A stretch of 39,055 nt of DNA, taken from IMG/VR virus record IMGVR_UViG_3300044491_000223, positions 1 to 39,055 of that record; one strand, given 5' to 3'. Both the position numbers and the translations under genes were made by a program. The first letter of the stretch is position 1. Each line of letters begins with the position of its first letter. This document shows, in pieces, positions 13,931 through 19,916 of this stretch. Below the pieces are notes generated by a model, which saw only the letters and a program-made list of their open reading frames with translations, made no database searches and was not told the DNA's origin. Origin of the DNA: a virus.

Positions 13931-15646
13931 ATGATCGTTTTTGAGACTATCCGTTGGAAAAACTTTCTGTCAACAGGGCAGCAGTTTACCCAAGTGGATT
14001 TGAGTGAGTCACCATCTACTTTAATTGTGGGTAATAACGGCGCAGGTAAGAGTACCATTCTTGATGCGCTTTGTTTTGTTTTGTTTAACAAACCATTTCG
14101 GAAGATTAACAAACCACAGTTGATGAACAGTGTTAATGAACGGGAACTTCTAGTAGAAGTTGAGTTTCAAATTGGCACTGTTAATTATAAAATAGTTCGT
14201 GGTCTTAAACCTGCTGTGTTTGAGATCTATCGTAATGGCGAACTAGTAGATCAGAATGCTGCTAACAAAGACTACCAAAAGTATTTGGAGCAAAGTATAC
14301 TTAAACTTAACTACAAGTCTTTCACTCAGGTTGTTATTCTTGGTAGTAGCACCTTTGTTCCTTTTATGCAATTGCCTGCTGCACATCGAAGAGAAGTTAT
14401 TGAAGATCTTTTGGATATTCAAATCTTCTCACAGATGAATGGTCTCTTGAAAGAAAGACTTAAAGATGCCAAAGATGAGCAACGCCAGTGTGAGTATGAA
14501 CTTGAAATGGCACAACAGAAAGTTGACATGCAAGTTCGTAACATTAACAATCTAGAAAATGTAGATAAGCAATACGTTGAGAATCAACAGCAGAAATTTG
14601 TTGCGAATGAAGATCGTGTAGTTGAAATCAAAGCACGTATTAAGGAAGTAGAAAAAGATATTTTAATTATTGAACCTGAGATTCTTAAATTAGATCTTGC
14701 TGTCGAAAAACACGACAAGTTTAAGGACATGAAGTCTAAGATGTATCATAAATTAAATACATCTAAGAAGAACTATGATTTCTTTGTAGAGAATCAAACA
14801 TGTCCTACTTGTACTCAGGAGATTGATAAAGAACTTCGTATTGCTAAGCAAGCAGAACTCAATCAAAGATGCATTGAACTAACTGATGCTGGGTCTCAGA
14901 TCATGGGGCAGATCACCACACTCAGTAAGAACATTACAGAACTTCGCGAGAAGGCAACTAAGATTAATGAGTACAGGTATGAGATTCAATCTCTCACCAA
15001 GGAAGAGATGCGTCTACTGAAAGACAACACTTCTATTATGTCTGAGGTAGGTAGCGATACCAGTAACTTGGAGAAAGAGAAGCAAGATCTTGAAATCATG
15101 ACACAAGCACTTGACAAGAAAGTCATTTCATGTTCTAATATAAACAAGCAGACAGATCATCTCAAATCGGTTGCTAATCTTCTGAAAGACGGTGGTATTA
15201 AGACTAAGATTATTTCTAAGTTTATTCCTATCATCAATCAGAGAATCAATAAGTATCTTCAAAGCATGGATTTCTATGTGAACTTCACGCTTGATGATAG
15301 TTTTAACGAGAAGATTCTTTCTCGTTTCCGTGATGATTTTTCCTATGCTTCTTTCTCTGAGGGTGAGAAGCAAAAGATTGATCTGGCGCTGTTGTTTACT
15401 TGGCGAGAAGTTGCTAAATTAAAAAATAGTGTGAGTACAAACCTTCTTCTTCTGGATGAAGTTTTTGACTCTTCACTCGATCAGTCTGCTACGGATGAAC
15501 TTATGAGGATTTTGAAAGGTCTAGGAGAGAAGACTAATCTTTTTGTGATATCTCACAAGGGTGACGTGCTCTATGATAAGTTTGAGCGAATCGTAGAGTT
15601 CTCCAAAGAAGGTGACTTTTCAACTATGTCAGCGGTGCAGGGATGA
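13931..15646 (+). CDS. 46: Recombination ATPase subunit gp46 (SbcC/Rad50-like)
   Basis: gp46 is the SMC-like ATPase that, with gp47, processes DNA ends. The 571 residues (T4 560) show Walker A GNNGAGKST at 34-42, two coiled-coil arms flanking a zinc hook CPTC at 291-294, the ABC signature SFSEGEKQKIDLAL near 476, Walker B LLLLDEVFDSSLD near 512 and a late switch His in ISHKGD. It starts one base after the preceding stop and its end overlaps speD by four bases. Confidence 0.96.
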   Translation: MIVFETIRWKNFLSTGQQFTQVDLSESPSTLIVGNNGAGKSTILDALCFVLFNKPFRKINKPQLMNSVNERELLVEVEFQIGTVNYKIVRGLKPAVFEIYRNGELVDQNAANKDYQKYLEQSILKLNYKSFTQVVILGSSTFVPFMQLPAAHRREVIEDLLDIQIFSQMNGLLKERLKDAKDEQRQCEYELEMAQQKVDMQVRNINNLENVDKQYVENQQQKFVANEDRVVEIKARIKEVEKDILIIEPEILKLDLAVEKHDKFKDMKSKMYHKLNTSKKNYDFFVENQTCPTCTQEIDKELRIAKQAELNQRCIELTDAGSQIMGQITTLSKNITELREKATKINEYRYEIQSLTKEEMRLLKDNTSIMSEVGSDTSNLEKEKQDLEIMTQALDKKVISCSNINKQTDHLKSVANLLKDGGIKTKIISKFIPIINQRINKYLQSMDFYVNFTLDDSFNEKILSRFRDDFSYASFSEGEKQKIDLALLFTWREVAKLKNSVSTNLLLLDEVFDSSLDQSATDELMRILKGLGEKTNLFVISHKGDVLYDKFERIVEFSKEGDFSTMSAVQG

Positions 15647-15978
15647 AACATATATTATTCACCCTACGCGAATGTAACTCTGAACTTCTAGATGATGAAT
15701 CATACATTCGTGACATGCTGGCAAAAGCGGCGGAGTGTGCAAACAGTACACTTCTAGGTATCCAATCACATAAGTTCTCTCCACAAGGCGTGACTGCCAT
15801 CGCTATGCTTGCTGAGTCTCATATCAGCATTCATACATGGCCTGAGACAGGCGAAGCAGTATGCGATGCCTTTACTTGTGGAGACCATACGGATCCTCAC
15901 GAGGCGTTTTCTTTCATGAAAGCGTCGTTACTGAGTAAGCGATGGGTATATCAGACCGTTAAGCGACCAGTTATATAA
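15643..15978 (+). CDS. speD: S-adenosylmethionine decarboxylase proenzyme SpeD
   Basis: This pyruvoyl enzyme decarboxylates AdoMet to provide aminopropyl groups for spermidine. The 111-residue size fits the small prokaryotic class. The self-processing site is Glu58/Ser59 in AESHISIHTWPE; Ser59 would become the pyruvoyl group, and His64 and Cys79 sit at the same offsets (+5 and +20) as the processing and catalytic residues of the Thermotoga enzyme. It is a known cyanophage auxiliary metabolic gene; polyamines may help condense DNA. No spermidine synthase lies in the window, so it would depend on host SpeE. Confidence 0.94.
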   Translation: MKHILFTLRECNSELLDDESYIRDMLAKAAECANSTLLGIQSHKFSPQGVTAIAMLAESHISIHTWPETGEAVCDAFTCGDHTDPHEAFSFMKASLLSKRWVYQTVKRPVI

Positions 15979-15986
15979 GTGTACTA

Positions 15987-16017
15987 CCCTCCTAGGTCTG
16001 TTGACTAGGGGGGTTTA
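15987..16017 (+). terminator. Hairpin terminator after speD
   Basis: CCCTCCTAG pairs with CTAGGGGGG (9 bp, one T-G pair) around a nine-base loop, then TTTATAC. It lies eight bases after the speD stop and ends the gp55-speD unit. The T tract is short. Confidence 0.68.
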
Positions 16018-16030
16018 TACTATCTGTATA
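16016..16030 (+). promoter_or_regulatory. TATACT -10 box within an inverted repeat upstream of the VWA-peptidase gene
   Basis: TATACT begins 29 nt before the ATG, and the surrounding TATAC-tatct-GTATA is a perfect 5+5 inverted repeat. No good -35 hexamer is visible. The same hexamer lies 30 nt before the AAA+ gene, so both genes of the pair appear to have matching host-type boxes. The inverted repeat could be an operator (inference). Confidence 0.42.
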
Positions 16031-16044
16031 CACACAAGGACACT

Positions 16045-18195
16045 ATGCTAAAAGAGATCAAGAGTACCCTTGCTCGTCTACTTGCTACCGAGAACCTCCT
16101 GGTGGAGCACAAGCAAGTACCTACTGCATCGTTCAATGTTGAGACACGGGTGTTGACTCTACCCATGTGGACTCGTGCTAGTGATACTGTTTATGATCTG
16201 TTGGTTGGTCATGAGGTTGGACATGCCTTGTATACACCTAATGATGACTCCCTTGATAACTTGGATTGTCCTCAGTCTTACGTGAACGTTACTGAGGATG
16301 CACGTATCGAGAAACTTATGAAGCGTAAGTATCCTGGTCTAGGAAAAGATTTCTATCAGGGATATAAAGAACTCAATGATGATGATTTCTTTGCTATTGC
16401 TGATGTAAAACTAGAAAGTATGTCTCTCATCGATAGAGTCAACCTTCACTACAAAATTGGTGCATATGCAATGCTTCCATTCAGTGCCCCTGAGACCCCT
16501 CTGAGAGACGCTGTGGGCGTTGCCGAAACATTTCAGCAAGCAATTGATGCTGCCATTGCTATTTACGAATTCGCCAAGCAGGAACAGGAACAAAAAAAGC
16601 ATGAAGTTCCTGCCACACCTAGTGCTTCTGCCCCTGGTAATACTACCGAGCAAGACACCAAGCAAGTTACCGAGCAAGTAGGTGAAGGTGAAACACCTCG
16701 TCCTTGGTTTACTGATGATGAAGGTGATGAGAGAGATGAGCAAAATGATGATGAAGATTCTGCCGATCTTGATACTCCTTCATACGATTATATACAACCA
16801 AACATTGATAACGTTCAGACACAACGTAACTTTGATGAAAATGCTGCTGATCTAATCAACAATAGTATTAGTAGTCCAACATATCTTTCTTTCCCTAAGA
16901 TTAATTTTAAAAATGTAATTGTTCCTAATGAACCGTTGTGGGATGATGCTGAATCTTATTGGAAGTCATACTATGAAGACTTTCCGAGCGATCCGTTTGT
17001 AGATGTTGATGAAGAGTTTCGTCAATTTTGTATTAACACTTCCAAGGATGTCAACTACCTAATTAAGGAGTTTGAGTGTAAGAAGTCTGCCTCATCATAT
17101 GCTCGTGCTACCACGTCTCGCACAGGTGTTCTTGATACAACTAAACTTCATAATTACAAATTCAGTGATGACATCTTTAAGAAAGTAACTCGTACTACTG
17201 ATGGAAAAAATCATGGTCTTGTATTTTTACTTGACTGGTCTGGTTCTATGTCTCCTGAAATCTTCGATACCGTATGTCAAGTAATCAATCTTGCTCAGTT
17301 CTGTAAGAAAGTTGGTATTCCTTTCGATGTATATACTTTCGTGACTGATGCTACCTTGTTAAAGTTCTTTGGTGTTCCTTGTGATACTCCTACTTCGGAT
17401 CTCCCACAAGTATCAAACTCTAAGGTAGGTGACTTTTACATTGATCCTCGTTTCAAACTAGTTAATGTATTGACTAGTGAAGGTAATCAAAGTAATTTCA
17501 AGCGTCAGTGTAATTATATGTACCGTGTTGCAAACTACTGGCACGAACGTCGGGATGTATTTAAGTTCCGTCCAGCACCACCATATACCATGGGTCTTGG
17601 TGGAACTCCATTGAACGATGCCTTAATTGTTATGCGACAGTATCTTGGTGAGTGGCAAAGGAGTGCAGGTGTTGAGAAGTCTCACCTAGTTATTCTGACA
17701 GATGGTGAGTCTCAGTCTGCTGCATATATGAAAGAACCAATGGAAGGAAGTTATCACAAGGATCCTTATCCCTATTATCTTCATAATCAACAGGTTACTA
17801 TTCGTACTCGTAATCGGTATTACAATTGTGATTGTCATTATGCTATAACCAATACACTTTTGAATATAATTCGTGATACACATCCTGAGTGTTCTGTTAT
17901 TGGTTTCCGTATCTGTTCCAATCGTGCATTGGGTCAATACCTGAAAGTTCTTGGTCTGACTGATATTGGGTCTACATATTGTAAGACACTTAGTCGTGAT
18001 AAATCTGTTGCTATTTCTAAGTCGCCTTATACTCAGTTGTATGTAGTTCAGTCTAGATCTTACAATGCTGATACTGAGATGACGGTTGCTGATGATGCCA
18101 CCAAGGGTCAGATTAGATCTGCGTTCCGAAAGTCATTGAAGTCAAAGTCGGTGAATCGTAAAATGCTCTCAGCGTTTGCTGGTCAAATTGCATAG
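16045..18195 (+). CDS. Metallopeptidase-like protein with a C-terminal VWA domain (CobT-like partner)
   Basis: This 716-residue protein has an N-terminal zinc-peptidase-like domain with HEVGH at 56-60 and a likely third ligand Glu84 in NVTEDARIEK. A long acidic low-complexity linker follows (about 178-255, rich in Gln, Glu and Asp). The C-terminal von Willebrand A domain has a MIDAS motif DWSGS at 397-401, a later Thr in GLGGTPLND and TDGES. This layout resembles CobT and other VWA partners of MoxR-family ATPases, and the next gene is such an ATPase. AAGGA precedes the ATG. Function is unproven: protease, metal insertion or complex remodelling are possible. Confidence 0.85.
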   Translation: MLKEIKSTLARLLATENLLVEHKQVPTASFNVETRVLTLPMWTRASDTVYDLLVGHEVGHALYTPNDDSLDNLDCPQSYVNVTEDARIEKLMKRKYPGLGKDFYQGYKELNDDDFFAIADVKLESMSLIDRVNLHYKIGAYAMLPFSAPETPLRDAVGVAETFQQAIDAAIAIYEFAKQEQEQKKHEVPATPSASAPGNTTEQDTKQVTEQVGEGETPRPWFTDDEGDERDEQNDDEDSADLDTPSYDYIQPNIDNVQTQRNFDENAADLINNSISSPTYLSFPKINFKNVIVPNEPLWDDAESYWKSYYEDFPSDPFVDVDEEFRQFCINTSKDVNYLIKEFECKKSASSYARATTSRTGVLDTTKLHNYKFSDDIFKKVTRTTDGKNHGLVFLLDWSGSMSPEIFDTVCQVINLAQFCKKVGIPFDVYTFVTDATLLKFFGVPCDTPTSDLPQVSNSKVGDFYIDPRFKLVNVLTSEGNQSNFKRQCNYMYRVANYWHERRDVFKFRPAPPYTMGLGGTPLNDALIVMRQYLGEWQRSAGVEKSHLVILTDGESQSAAYMKEPMEGSYHKDPYPYYLHNQQVTIRTRNRYYNCDCHYAITNTLLNIIRDTHPECSVIGFRICSNRALGQYLKVLGLTDIGSTYCKTLSRDKSVAISKSPYTQLYVVQSRSYNADTEMTVADDATKGQIRSAFRKSLKSKSVNRKMLSAFAGQIA

Positions 18196-18200
18196 TGTCT

Positions 18201-18237
18201 ACTCTGCCCCTGACTCTGCCTCACTCTGCCCTATACT
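18201..18237 (+). promoter_or_regulatory. Direct-repeat operator-like element and TATACT promoter upstream of the AAA+ gene
   Basis: ACTCTGCC occurs three times on one strand (starts 18201, 18213, 18223), the last two exactly 10 bp apart, one helical turn. TATACT follows at 18232-18237, and CTGACT at 18210-18215 lies 16 bp upstream as a possible -35 box within the repeats. This is the whole 66-base gap between the two genes. Repeats overlapping a promoter suggest binding of a regulator, but the element may also be a slipped duplication. Confidence 0.5.
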
Positions 18238-18261
18238 AACTACATCAACACAAGACAACCA

Positions 18262-19353
18262 ATGCCTGCCCCATCTGACTTGAACATCACTGACCTGCTT
18301 GCATATTTTCTTGATACATACGCTACACCTGAGGTAGATACTTCAAAAGTTCTTGCTGCTGCTGACCACTTTAAACTTTCATACCCCACTGTATGTAAGC
18401 GTATTGAAAAGTTTAAAGTGGGTCGTGGTAAGTGGAACTTGACTCCATCAGAACTGGAAAAAACATATCGATCACCTTCTGCATCTCCCGCTGTTGAGGT
18501 TTCAACCTTGATCCCAACCAAAGATAAAAACTATGTTCCTTTTGGAAACTTCACAGATCTGAAAAAGATCATCAACTCAGGTGTATTCTATCCTACTTTC
18601 ATCACGGGTCTGTCTGGTAACGGTAAAACCATGGGAGTTGAGCAAGCATGTGCTCAGACCAATCGTGAACTGATTCGTGTCAACATCACCATTGAGACTG
18701 ATGAAGATGATCTTATTGGTGGTTTCCGTCTAGTTGATGGCAACACTGTGTGGCACAATGGTCCTGTTATTGAGGCATTGGAACGTGGTGCAGTCCTACT
18801 CCTAGATGAGATTGACCTTGCATCGAACAAAATTCTTTGTCTTCAATCTATTCTTGAAGGTACAGGTGTGTACTTGAAGAAGACTGGTGTCACCGTTACA
18901 CCCGCACCTGGATTTACTGTATTCGCTACTGCCAATACAAAGGGTAAGGGTTCTGATGATGGACGATTCATCGGCACTAACGTGTTGAATGAAGCATTCT
19001 TGGAGCGTTTCCCTCTTACGTTTGAGCAAGAGTATCCTATTCCTCGTATTGAGACTAAGATGCTCAACAACTACTGCTCAGATTTGGGTTGTTGTGACGA
19101 TGAGTTCATTACTAACCTTTGTACATGGGCAGATGTTATTCGTAAGACTTTTGCCGAGGGTGGTATTGATGAAGTCATCTCCACACGTCGTCTTGTTCAC
19201 ATTATTCGTGCTTTCTCTATCTTTAATAATCGTTTGAAAGCAATTAAACTGTGCCTTAACCGTTTCGATGATGAAACTAAGAGTGCTTTCTTGGAACTGT
19301 ACTCTAAGATTGATGCTAATGTTGAACTGAACCCTACTCTTCTTGACTCCTGA
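18262..19353 (+). CDS. cobS: CobS/MoxR-type AAA+ ATPase
   Basis: A 363-residue AAA+ ATPase of the type annotated cobS in cyanophages. Residues 1-75 form a helix-turn-helix-like N-terminal domain (SYPTVCKRIEKFKVG); the ATPase domain has Walker A GLSGNGKT at 116-123, Walker B LLLDEIDLA near 180-187, a sensor-1 FATANT at 221-226 and a later STRRLVHIIRAF. CobS with CobT and CobN inserts cobalt in aerobic B12 synthesis, but here the partner is the preceding VWA-peptidase and no CobN is seen, so a general MoxR-VWA remodelling role is at least as likely. It overlaps the next gene as TGATG. Confidence 0.85.
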   Translation: MPAPSDLNITDLLAYFLDTYATPEVDTSKVLAAADHFKLSYPTVCKRIEKFKVGRGKWNLTPSELEKTYRSPSASPAVEVSTLIPTKDKNYVPFGNFTDLKKIINSGVFYPTFITGLSGNGKTMGVEQACAQTNRELIRVNITIETDEDDLIGGFRLVDGNTVWHNGPVIEALERGAVLLLDEIDLASNKILCLQSILEGTGVYLKKTGVTVTPAPGFTVFATANTKGKGSDDGRFIGTNVLNEAFLERFPLTFEQEYPIPRIETKMLNNYCSDLGCCDDEFITNLCTWADVIRKTFAEGGIDEVISTRRLVHIIRAFSIFNNRLKAIKLCLNRFDDETKSAFLELYSKIDANVELNPTLLDS

Positions 19354-19916
19354 TGCTATATCGTACACAAATTCTTGATGACTCTGGAACATCCAGGGTC
19401 CTTTCCCAAGTTGATCCTGTTCTCATTGTAAATCCTATCAAACGTGTTGATGAAGACAAGGGTATTGACCCCGAATGGTTGGATGAGCAAGTAGACAACT
19501 CTCTACACCCAGAACTTACTCTTTCTAGTGGACGAACTGGTTACACTTATAAGAAGTACAATCCAGGACAAGACTACGATTGGCACCAAGATGAAATTAC
19601 TGATGGTGCTGGATTGAGAATGGATATGTCTACTACACTATTTCTTAATGACCCAACTGACTATGAAGGTGGCGAGTTAGAGTTGCGTTTTGGTGACTTT
19701 GGTGTTAGTATTAAACTTCCAGCAGGTCATGCTGTAATTTATCCAACAGGTATTATCCATCGTGTAAAACCTGTCACTTCTGGTGTTCGTAAAGTAGTTC
19801 ATTGGTGGGACGAATCAACCGTCCAGAATCCTTTCCAACGAGATGCCATTATTCAACTCAACAAACACCCCGACAGGTTTGACCTACACACTGCAACACT
19901 TGAACGTTTCTGTTAA
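19353..19916 (+). CDS. 2OG-Fe(II) oxygenase, PKHD / prolyl hydroxylase type (first of three)
   Basis: A 187-residue double-stranded beta-helix oxygenase using 2-oxoglutarate, oxygen and ferrous iron. The metal triad is clear: His78 and Asp80 in WHQDEI and distal His136 in IIHRVKP, with Arg146 as the 2-oxoglutarate ligand. YEGGELEL between them is typical of the PKHD group. The substrate is unknown; family members hydroxylate proline, lysine or nucleobases. It is translationally coupled to the AAA+ gene, so it may act with that module or simply share its transcript. Confidence 0.87.
   Translation: MLYRTQILDDSGTSRVLSQVDPVLIVNPIKRVDEDKGIDPEWLDEQVDNSLHPELTLSSGRTGYTYKKYNPGQDYDWHQDEITDGAGLRMDMSTTLFLNDPTDYEGGELELRFGDFGVSIKLPAGHAVIYPTGIIHRVKPVTSGVRKVVHWWDESTVQNPFQRDAIIQLNKHPDRFDLHTATLERFC

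What the first reader, a model, noticed from the sequence alone, without database searches (positions are those of the whole stretch)
16016..19353. A two-gene VWA-metallopeptidase plus CobS/MoxR ATPase module that is probably not a cobalamin system
Seen: a 716-residue protein joins HEVGH (56-60, likely third ligand Glu84) to a VWA domain with a full MIDAS motif (397-401) through a long acidic linker. The next gene is a CobS-type AAA+ ATPase with intact Walker A and B. Known: MoxR/CobS ATPases work with VWA partners to insert metals or remodel proteins. No CobN-like chelatase subunit or other B12 gene is present here. Inference: the cyanophage 'cobS' may be the motor of a proteolytic or remodelling machine acting on host or virion proteins, with the linker or VWA domain as adaptor. 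The helix-turn-helix-like N-terminus of the ATPase is also unusual.
Basis: partly seen in the sequence, partly recalled or inferred. Interest (0 to 1): 0.82.

Follow-up and report, generated by a model that had tools for sequence, protein, structure and literature searches.

The report
Phage protease-motif CobT with CobS motor
Two neighbouring genes that marine cyanobacterial viruses carry, usually described as vitamin-B12 genes, look instead like an ATP-driven protein-processing machine: its partner protein is a relative of the B12 protein CobT that still has an intact zinc-protease site, which the bacterial B12 version has lost.

Summary
ORF 16045-18195 (716 aa) has HEVGH (56-60) with Glu84, an acidic disordered linker and a VWA/MIDAS domain. 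ORF 18262-19353 (363 aa) is a CobS-type AAA+ ATPase. The window is a Kyanoviridae (T4-like cyanophage) fragment.

The 716-aa protein is a distant CobT homologue, linked through phage and phage-plasmid CobTs that pass Pfam's CobT cut-offs and carry HExxH...NxxEDxxIE. Bacterial CobTs (80/80) have lost HExxH (mostly SMALR) but keep the downstream Glu. In Kyanoviridae the zinc motif, MIDAS residues and pairing are invariant, including 40/40 full-length N-termini from a CobS-seeded search. The N-domain folds confidently (pLDDT 93) and resembles zincins; the VWA is closest to midasin and NorD.

A dedicated B12 role is unlikely: relatives live in E. coli, Klebsiella, Vibrio and Pelagibacter phages, and 101 of 290 alphaproteobacterial genomes have CobT without CobN or CbiC. 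Neighbours are replication, recombination and sigma-factor genes. Best reading: an AAA+/VWA-coupled zinc metallopeptidase/remodeller, perhaps acting on DNA-bound complexes. Catalysis and target are untested. Earlier papers described parts (PMC8651126, PMC7824862).

The parts
16045..18195 (+). CobT-like metallopeptidase-VWA protein, 716 aa (phrog_459 'peptidase')
16045..16605 (+). N-terminal zincin-like domain, residues 1-187
   Evidence: AF2 pLDDT 93.2, pTM 0.89; PDB matches mostly zincins
16210..16224 (+). HEVGH, residues 56-60 (predicted Zn ligands H56, H60; catalytic E57)
   Evidence: invariant in A5 and in 40/40 CobS-seeded loci
16294..16305 (+). E84-D85-A86-R87, predicted third Zn ligand E84 on the following helix
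   Evidence: E84, D85, R87 invariant; E84, D85 invariant over 63 N-domains incl. phage-plasmids
16606..16800 (+). acidic disordered linker, residues 188-252
   Evidence: pLDDT <50
17197..18192 (+). VWA domain, residues about 385-716
   Evidence: VIA-align Z 16.5 to midasin MIDAS 8ql1, 16.3 to NorD VWA 9qh6
17233..17247 (+). MIDAS D397-x-S399-x-S401
   Evidence: invariant
17605..17607 (+). MIDAS Thr T521
   Evidence: invariant
17701..17703 (+). MIDAS Asp D553
   Evidence: invariant
18262..19353 (+). CobS-type MoxR-class AAA+ ATPase, 363 aa (phrog_249)
   Evidence: AAA_5 4.5e-17; TIGR01650 PD_CobS 1.3e-19, below its equivalog cut-off
18262..18456 (+). HTH-like N-terminal extension of the ATPase, residues about 1-65
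   Evidence: conserved pattern in cyanophages; weak Pfam DUF2089-HTH E 0.051
18607..18630 (+). Walker A GLSGNGKT
18805..18810 (+). Walker B D182-E183
15643..15978 (+). neighbour: speD (S-adenosylmethionine decarboxylase)
   Evidence: PF02675 3.6e-35
13931..15646 (+). neighbour: gp46 recombination endonuclease subunit
   Evidence: SMC_N/AAA_23; synteny
19353..19916 (+). neighbour: 2OG-Fe(II) oxygenase, start overlaps the CobS stop by one base
   Evidence: PF13640 3.3e-13

Best explanation
The two genes encode one ATP-driven machine. Shown: the ATPase is a CobS-type MoxR-class AAA+ protein; its partner is a CobT-family VWA protein whose N-terminal domain keeps a complete, strictly conserved HExxH...E zinc-peptidase motif that bacterial CobT has lost. 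Inferred: the AAA+ ring (a hexamer, as known for this ATPase class) binds the VWA domain of the partner via MIDAS; ATP hydrolysis remodels or unfolds a substrate brought in by the VWA domain, the acidic linker and the ATPase's N-terminal domain, and the zincin domain cuts it. More speculative: the substrates are proteins in phage DNA complexes (replication, recombination, late transcription), because the pair sits among those genes in unrelated phages and plasmids and because mobile-element CobS proteins carry HTH-like or ROS/MucR-like N-termini. It is not primarily a cobalamin system. My sub-estimates: CobT-family descent 0.93; zinc-binding, peptidase-competent domain 0.75; function not mainly B12 0.85; target in DNA metabolism 0.4.
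For: Motif and MIDAS invariance. N-domain model pLDDT 93.2 with the HExxH helix 47-63 followed by a 'glutamate helix' 77-95; PDB matches dominated by zinc metallopeptidases: ArdC Z 7.7, selecase/jannalysin/abylysin 5.9-6.5, Wss1 5.9, BlaR1 5.8, ZMPSTE24 5.5, IrrE 5.4. VWA closest to AAA+-coupled VWAs (midasin Z 16.5, NorD 16.3; other VWAs 12.7 or less). Profile homology: cyanophage N-domain to mobile-element CobT N-domain E 1.4e-18, that to bacterial CobT 2.1e-9, VWA regions 1.2e-12; best of 20 column shuffles 0.0066 or worse. PhiR41_1 protein passes Pfam CobT (94.7 bits) and CobT_C (274.6 bits) and has HEVAH. Bacterial CobT: 0/80 HExxH, Glu kept. Hosts: E. coli, Klebsiella, Vibrio, Pelagibacter. 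CobT without CobN or CbiC in 101 of 290 alphaproteobacterial genomes. Neighbours DnaE (10), sigma factor (13), UDG (6), DNA ligase (2) among 102 flanking proteins.
Against: No zinc, proteolysis, complex or substrate has been shown. N-domain fold matches are individually weak (Z below 8, Foldseek E 0.04 or more). Cyanobacteria do have CobN (Synechococcus elongatus control), so hijacking remains possible there. The motif was lost at least once more in a mobile element (A. baumannii phage-plasmid, QEVAK), so an intact site is not needed for every member. Early/middle phage regions are rich in replication genes anyway, so context is weak evidence for a target.
Confidence: 0.6

Rival explanations
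1. Cobaltochelatase motor: viral CobST replaces the missing cellular CobST (or ChlI/ChlD) and drives host CobN to insert cobalt, raising B12 supply (proposed in PMC8651126).
For: CobST homology; CobN present in Synechococcus elongatus; almost every alphaproteobacterium with CbiC also has CobT (111 of 112).
Against: The zinc site lost in all 80 real CobTs examined is invariant here. Relatives are in phages and plasmids of hosts without aerobic B12 synthesis (E. coli, Klebsiella, Vibrio, Pelagibacter; host physiology from general knowledge). CobT exists without CobN in 104 of 228 CobT-positive alphaproteobacterial genomes.
Confidence: 0.12
2. Non-proteolytic MoxR/VWA chaperone or metal-insertase (NorQD- or CbbQO-like) that activates another enzyme, for example the adjacent 2OG-Fe(II) oxygenase; the zincin domain is a binding scaffold.
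For: VWA closest to NorD and midasin; CobS stop overlaps the oxygenase start here and in S-WAM1; bacterial CobT works with a degenerate version of the domain.
Against: Strict conservation of E57 as well as H56, H60 and E84 is hard to explain for a scaffold; the oxygenase does not follow CobS in ACG-2014d or in the phage-plasmids.
Confidence: 0.15
3. Virion assembly or maturation protease/chaperone, as proposed for jumbo phages (PMC7824862).
For: That paper cites a MoxR-vWA system needed for tail assembly of the Acidianus two-tailed virus; in the window the gp22 scaffold gene lies about 10 kb upstream.
Against: No virion structural family appears among the 25 most frequent PHROGs of 102 proteins flanking the pair in diverse non-cyanophage loci; conjugative plasmids, which make no virions, carry a MoxR-DUF3150-VWA(HExxH) version.
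Confidence: 0.12

Closest known systems
Aerobic cobaltochelatase CobS/CobT (TIGR01650; PF06213 + PF11775; PDB 9uka)
   Same: Adjacent CobS-type AAA+ and CobT-type protein with N-domain, acidic linker and C-terminal MIDAS/VWA; profile homology through mobile-element CobTs
   Different: Intact HExxH + Glu (lost in 80/80 bacterial CobTs); no CobN; ATPase has an HTH-like N-terminus absent from bacterial CobS; the window protein itself does not match the CobT Pfam models
MoxR AAA+ / metallopeptidase-vWA pair of group 2.2 jumbo phages (PMC7824862)
   Same: Same domain architecture: metallopeptidase fused N-terminally to vWA next to a MoxR ATPase
   Different: Here in the T4-like cyanophage core and linked to CobT; sequence relation to that exact jumbo-phage protein was not tested
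NorQ/NorD
   Same: Same class of ATPase; VWA domains structurally alike (Z 16.3)
   Different: No zincin domain is known in NorD; it serves NO reductase (general knowledge)
Minigluzincins (abylysin, jannalysin, selecase) and Wss1/IrrE/ArdC zincins
   Same: Fold arrangement and HExxH helix followed by further helices
   Different: No sequence similarity detected; those are not fused to VWA

Membership tests
CobT (PF06213/PF11775) | Match to the CobT Pfam models above cut-off | tested here: not met
   Window protein: no match; relatives in E. coli phage PhiR41_1 and an A. baumannii phage-plasmid do match
CobT (PF06213/PF11775) | Homology by profile comparison to CobT | tested here: met
   Transitive: 1.4e-18 and 2.1e-9 (N), 1.2e-12 (VWA to mobile-element CobT), shuffles 0.0066 or worse; the direct cyanophage-bacterial comparison is not significant (0.041 and 0.0048)
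Aerobic cobaltochelatase | CobN large subunit encoded or required | tested here: inconclusive
   No CobN in the 39-kb virus record, a fragment; CobN present in the S. elongatus control; actual host unknown
Aerobic cobaltochelatase | ATP-dependent cobalt insertion activity | not testable with these tools
   needs biochemistry
CobS (TIGR01650 equivalog) | Score above the equivalog cut-off (558.55 bits) | tested here: not met
   70.5 bits
Zincin/gluzincin metallopeptidase | HExxH plus Glu on a following helix, conserved | tested here: met
Zincin/gluzincin metallopeptidase | Zincin fold | tested here: inconclusive
   Best matches are nearly all zincins but Z is 7.7 or lower
Zincin/gluzincin metallopeptidase | Zinc binding and peptidase activity | not testable with these tools
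   needs biochemistry
MoxR AAA+/VWA systems | MoxR-class AAA+ with intact Walker A/B next to a MIDAS VWA partner | tested here: met
MoxR AAA+/VWA systems | Physical ATPase-VWA complex | not testable with these tools
   only single chains can be modelled here

The most novel reading that the evidence does not exclude
The cobaltochelatase motor CobST is a protease-dead, domesticated offshoot of a widespread mobile-element machine, an AAA+/VWA-coupled zinc metallopeptidase that processes proteins on phage DNA complexes; even cellular CobST keeps a B12-independent job, which explains its presence in alphaproteobacteria without CobN.
Probability: 0.3. Interest if true: 0.82.

Novelty: new variant of a known kind. 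Interest (0 to 1): 0.66.

Why it matters
cobS is a core cyanophage gene and is treated in the literature as a B12 auxiliary metabolic gene. If its partner is an active zinc peptidase, statements about viral support of B12 supply in the ocean lose their basis, and a core machine of common ocean phages becomes a defined protein-processing problem. It also offers an origin for CobT and makes a puzzle testable: why about 100 of 290 alphaproteobacterial genomes keep CobT without CobN or CbiC.

Tried and rejected
phmmer and hmmsearch of the whole protein against PDB sequences: nothing useful. Plasmid tblastn with the cyanophage protein: no match; its CobS did find phage-plasmid relatives. PADLOC: no hit for the window pair. 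Direct profile comparison cyanophage to bacterial CobT: not significant, only the route through mobile-element CobTs is. PDB fold search did not list CobT 9uka, which excludes nothing. Scans 52 and 53 used HExxH peptides as seeds, so their motif counts were not used as evidence of conservation; the CobS-seeded check was made for that. Staphylococcus, Acinetobacter P577 and Microbacterium AAA+ hits are remote, without a HExxH partner where looked at, and were set aside.
Full report
WHAT IS THERE. Two + strand ORFs, 16045-18195 (716 aa) and 18262-19353 (363 aa), lie between gp46/speD and a 2OG-Fe(II) oxygenase. Upstream are uvsW, a sigma-like gp55, gp47 and gp46; downstream a DUF3310 protein, a pyrimidine-dimer glycosylase and the gp44 clamp loader. 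The order matches Kyanoviridae such as S-WAM1. The window is a 39-kb virus record.

CONSERVATION AND PAIRING. tblastn finds the 716-aa protein in 463 phage records and the ATPase in 718; counts for Synechococcus (365), 'Cyanophage' (61) and Prochlorococcus (24) records are identical for the two genes. These are counts by name, not a record-by-record join, but the listed accessions overlap, and in four records inspected the genes lie 0.1-2.8 kb apart. With CobS as bait in viral contigs, 54 of 65 new loci hold the partner; the other 11 have under 1.5 kb upstream of CobS. All 40 full-length N-termini have HExxH and NxxEDxR. In 56 relatives the zinc and MIDAS residues are invariant.

THE N-DOMAIN. 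Modelled alone with 63 sequences it reaches pLDDT 93.2 and pTM 0.89; HExxH sits in helix 47-63 and E84 in helix 77-95. Fold comparison returns mostly zincins: ArdC, selecase/abylysin/jannalysin, Wss1, BlaR1, ZMPSTE24, IrrE/PprI, BepA. Each match is modest (Z 7.7 or lower); the consistency of the list together with the motif is what carries weight. The VWA domain is closest to midasin MIDAS and NorD VWA, both partners of AAA+ motors.

RELATION TO CobT. The window protein does not match the CobT Pfam models. But the protein beside CobS in E. coli phage PhiR41_1 matches both (94.7 and 274.6 bits) and has HEVAH...NALEDVFIE. Profile comparisons join cyanophage to mobile-element CobT (1.4e-18 N-domain, 1.2e-12 VWA region) and mobile-element to bacterial CobT (2.1e-9), against 0.0066 or worse for shuffled profiles. 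The direct cyanophage-bacterial comparison is not significant. At the HExxH position 80 of 80 bacterial CobTs read SMALR, SIALK and the like, while the downstream Glu is kept as VEQARVE. In a VWA tree bacterial CobT is one clade (100/100, long stem) nested among HExxH-bearing mobile-element proteins, and the A. baumannii phage-plasmid (QEVAK) lies elsewhere. Two losses from an active ancestor is the simplest reading; the root is a midpoint, several branches are long and chromosomal sampling was confined to close relatives of S. meliloti CobT, so the direction is inferred. Of 398 Pseudomonadota genomes, 9 have a hit to the N-domain profile, several beside a DUF3150-like gene as on plasmids.

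WHY NOT B12. Relatives occur in phages or phage-plasmids of E. coli, Klebsiella, Acinetobacter, Vibrio and Pelagibacter; that such hosts lack aerobic corrin synthesis is general knowledge, not tested here. In 290 alphaproteobacterial genomes CobT occurs in 228, CobN in 126 (E up to 0.001), CbiC in 112; 101 genomes have CobT with neither. Completeness of these genomes was not told. Bartonella washoeensis, B. vinsonii and Nitrobacter sp. Nb-311A encode CobT but no CobN was found. So CobT alone does not imply B12. Against this, 111 of 112 CbiC-positive genomes have CobT, so CobT does serve B12 where B12 is made, and cyanobacteria do have CobN.

CONTEXT. In diverse non-cyanophage loci, 102 flanking proteins include DNA polymerase III alpha (10), a sigma factor (13), uracil-DNA glycosylase (6) and DNA ligase (2); no virion structural family is among the 25 most frequent. 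Plasmid versions or remote relatives lie by RecT/exonuclease or ssb-bet-exo. Cyanophage CobS has a conserved HTH-like N-terminus, and 25 of 55 phage-plasmid-type CobS have a CxxC..H..H finger, one scoring to ROS_MUCR at 1.6e-4, just below cut-off; the four bacterial CobS shown have neither. This suggests, without showing, a DNA-associated target.

LITERATURE. PMC8651126 calls the pair cobST, says cobT is mistakenly annotated as a peptidase and proposes that it hijacks host CobN. PMC7824862 reports a MoxR plus metallopeptidase-vWA pair in jumbo phages and proposes a virion role. PMC5083919 states that the cyanophage cobS is not actually homologous to bacterial cobS; the data here show it is a distant relative of the cobaltochelatase CobS. 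The present data reconcile the first two: the protein is both CobT-related and peptidase-like. I found no paper stating that CobT's N-domain is a degenerate zincin, but the library is incomplete.

VERDICT. Real, conserved, partly described before, function unproven. An AAA+/VWA-coupled zinc metallopeptidase or remodeller is the best explanation (0.6).

Noticed in passing
L034, L035, L200-L279; 290 genomes: Bacterial CobT is found without CobN or CbiC in 101 of 290 alphaproteobacterial genomes, and in two Rhizobiaceae replicons looked at cobST lies beside BolA, DnaJ-domain and rpmB genes rather than B12 genes: a likely B12-independent role.
   Followed up: partly
L038, L039, L041, L360-L362, L365: MoxR ATPase + DUF3150 + HExxH-VWA triples on plasmids and in genomes, the Proteus NDM plasmid one beside RecT and lambda-type exonuclease; function unknown.
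   Followed up: partly
L172, L184, L189, L196: Relatives with one residue inserted in the zinc helix (HEVAGH, HEAGGH) while the downstream ED motif is kept.
   Followed up: no
PDB 9zq6_B versus N-domain profile A8: Anti-CRISPR AcrIIA26 matches the Glu-helix segment (LNFVEDNFIE) at E 0.00046 over 50 residues; chance or a remote link.
   Followed up: no
L158, L176, L187: The VWA part is an ORF of its own with another long ORF just upstream, possibly the peptidase-like domain split off as a separate gene.
   Followed up: no
window:19353: The CobS stop and the start of the 2OG-Fe(II) oxygenase overlap by one base, as in S-WAM1; possible translational coupling.
   Followed up: no
L025:5659-6894, L036:4455-5699: Phage-plasmid CobS proteins carry an N-terminal C2H2 ROS/MucR-like zinc finger not seen in the bacterial CobS looked at.
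   Followed up: partly
L006:6647-8780: One close relative's CobT-like gene is split by a frameshift (two overlapping ORFs), maybe an assembly error.
   Followed up: no
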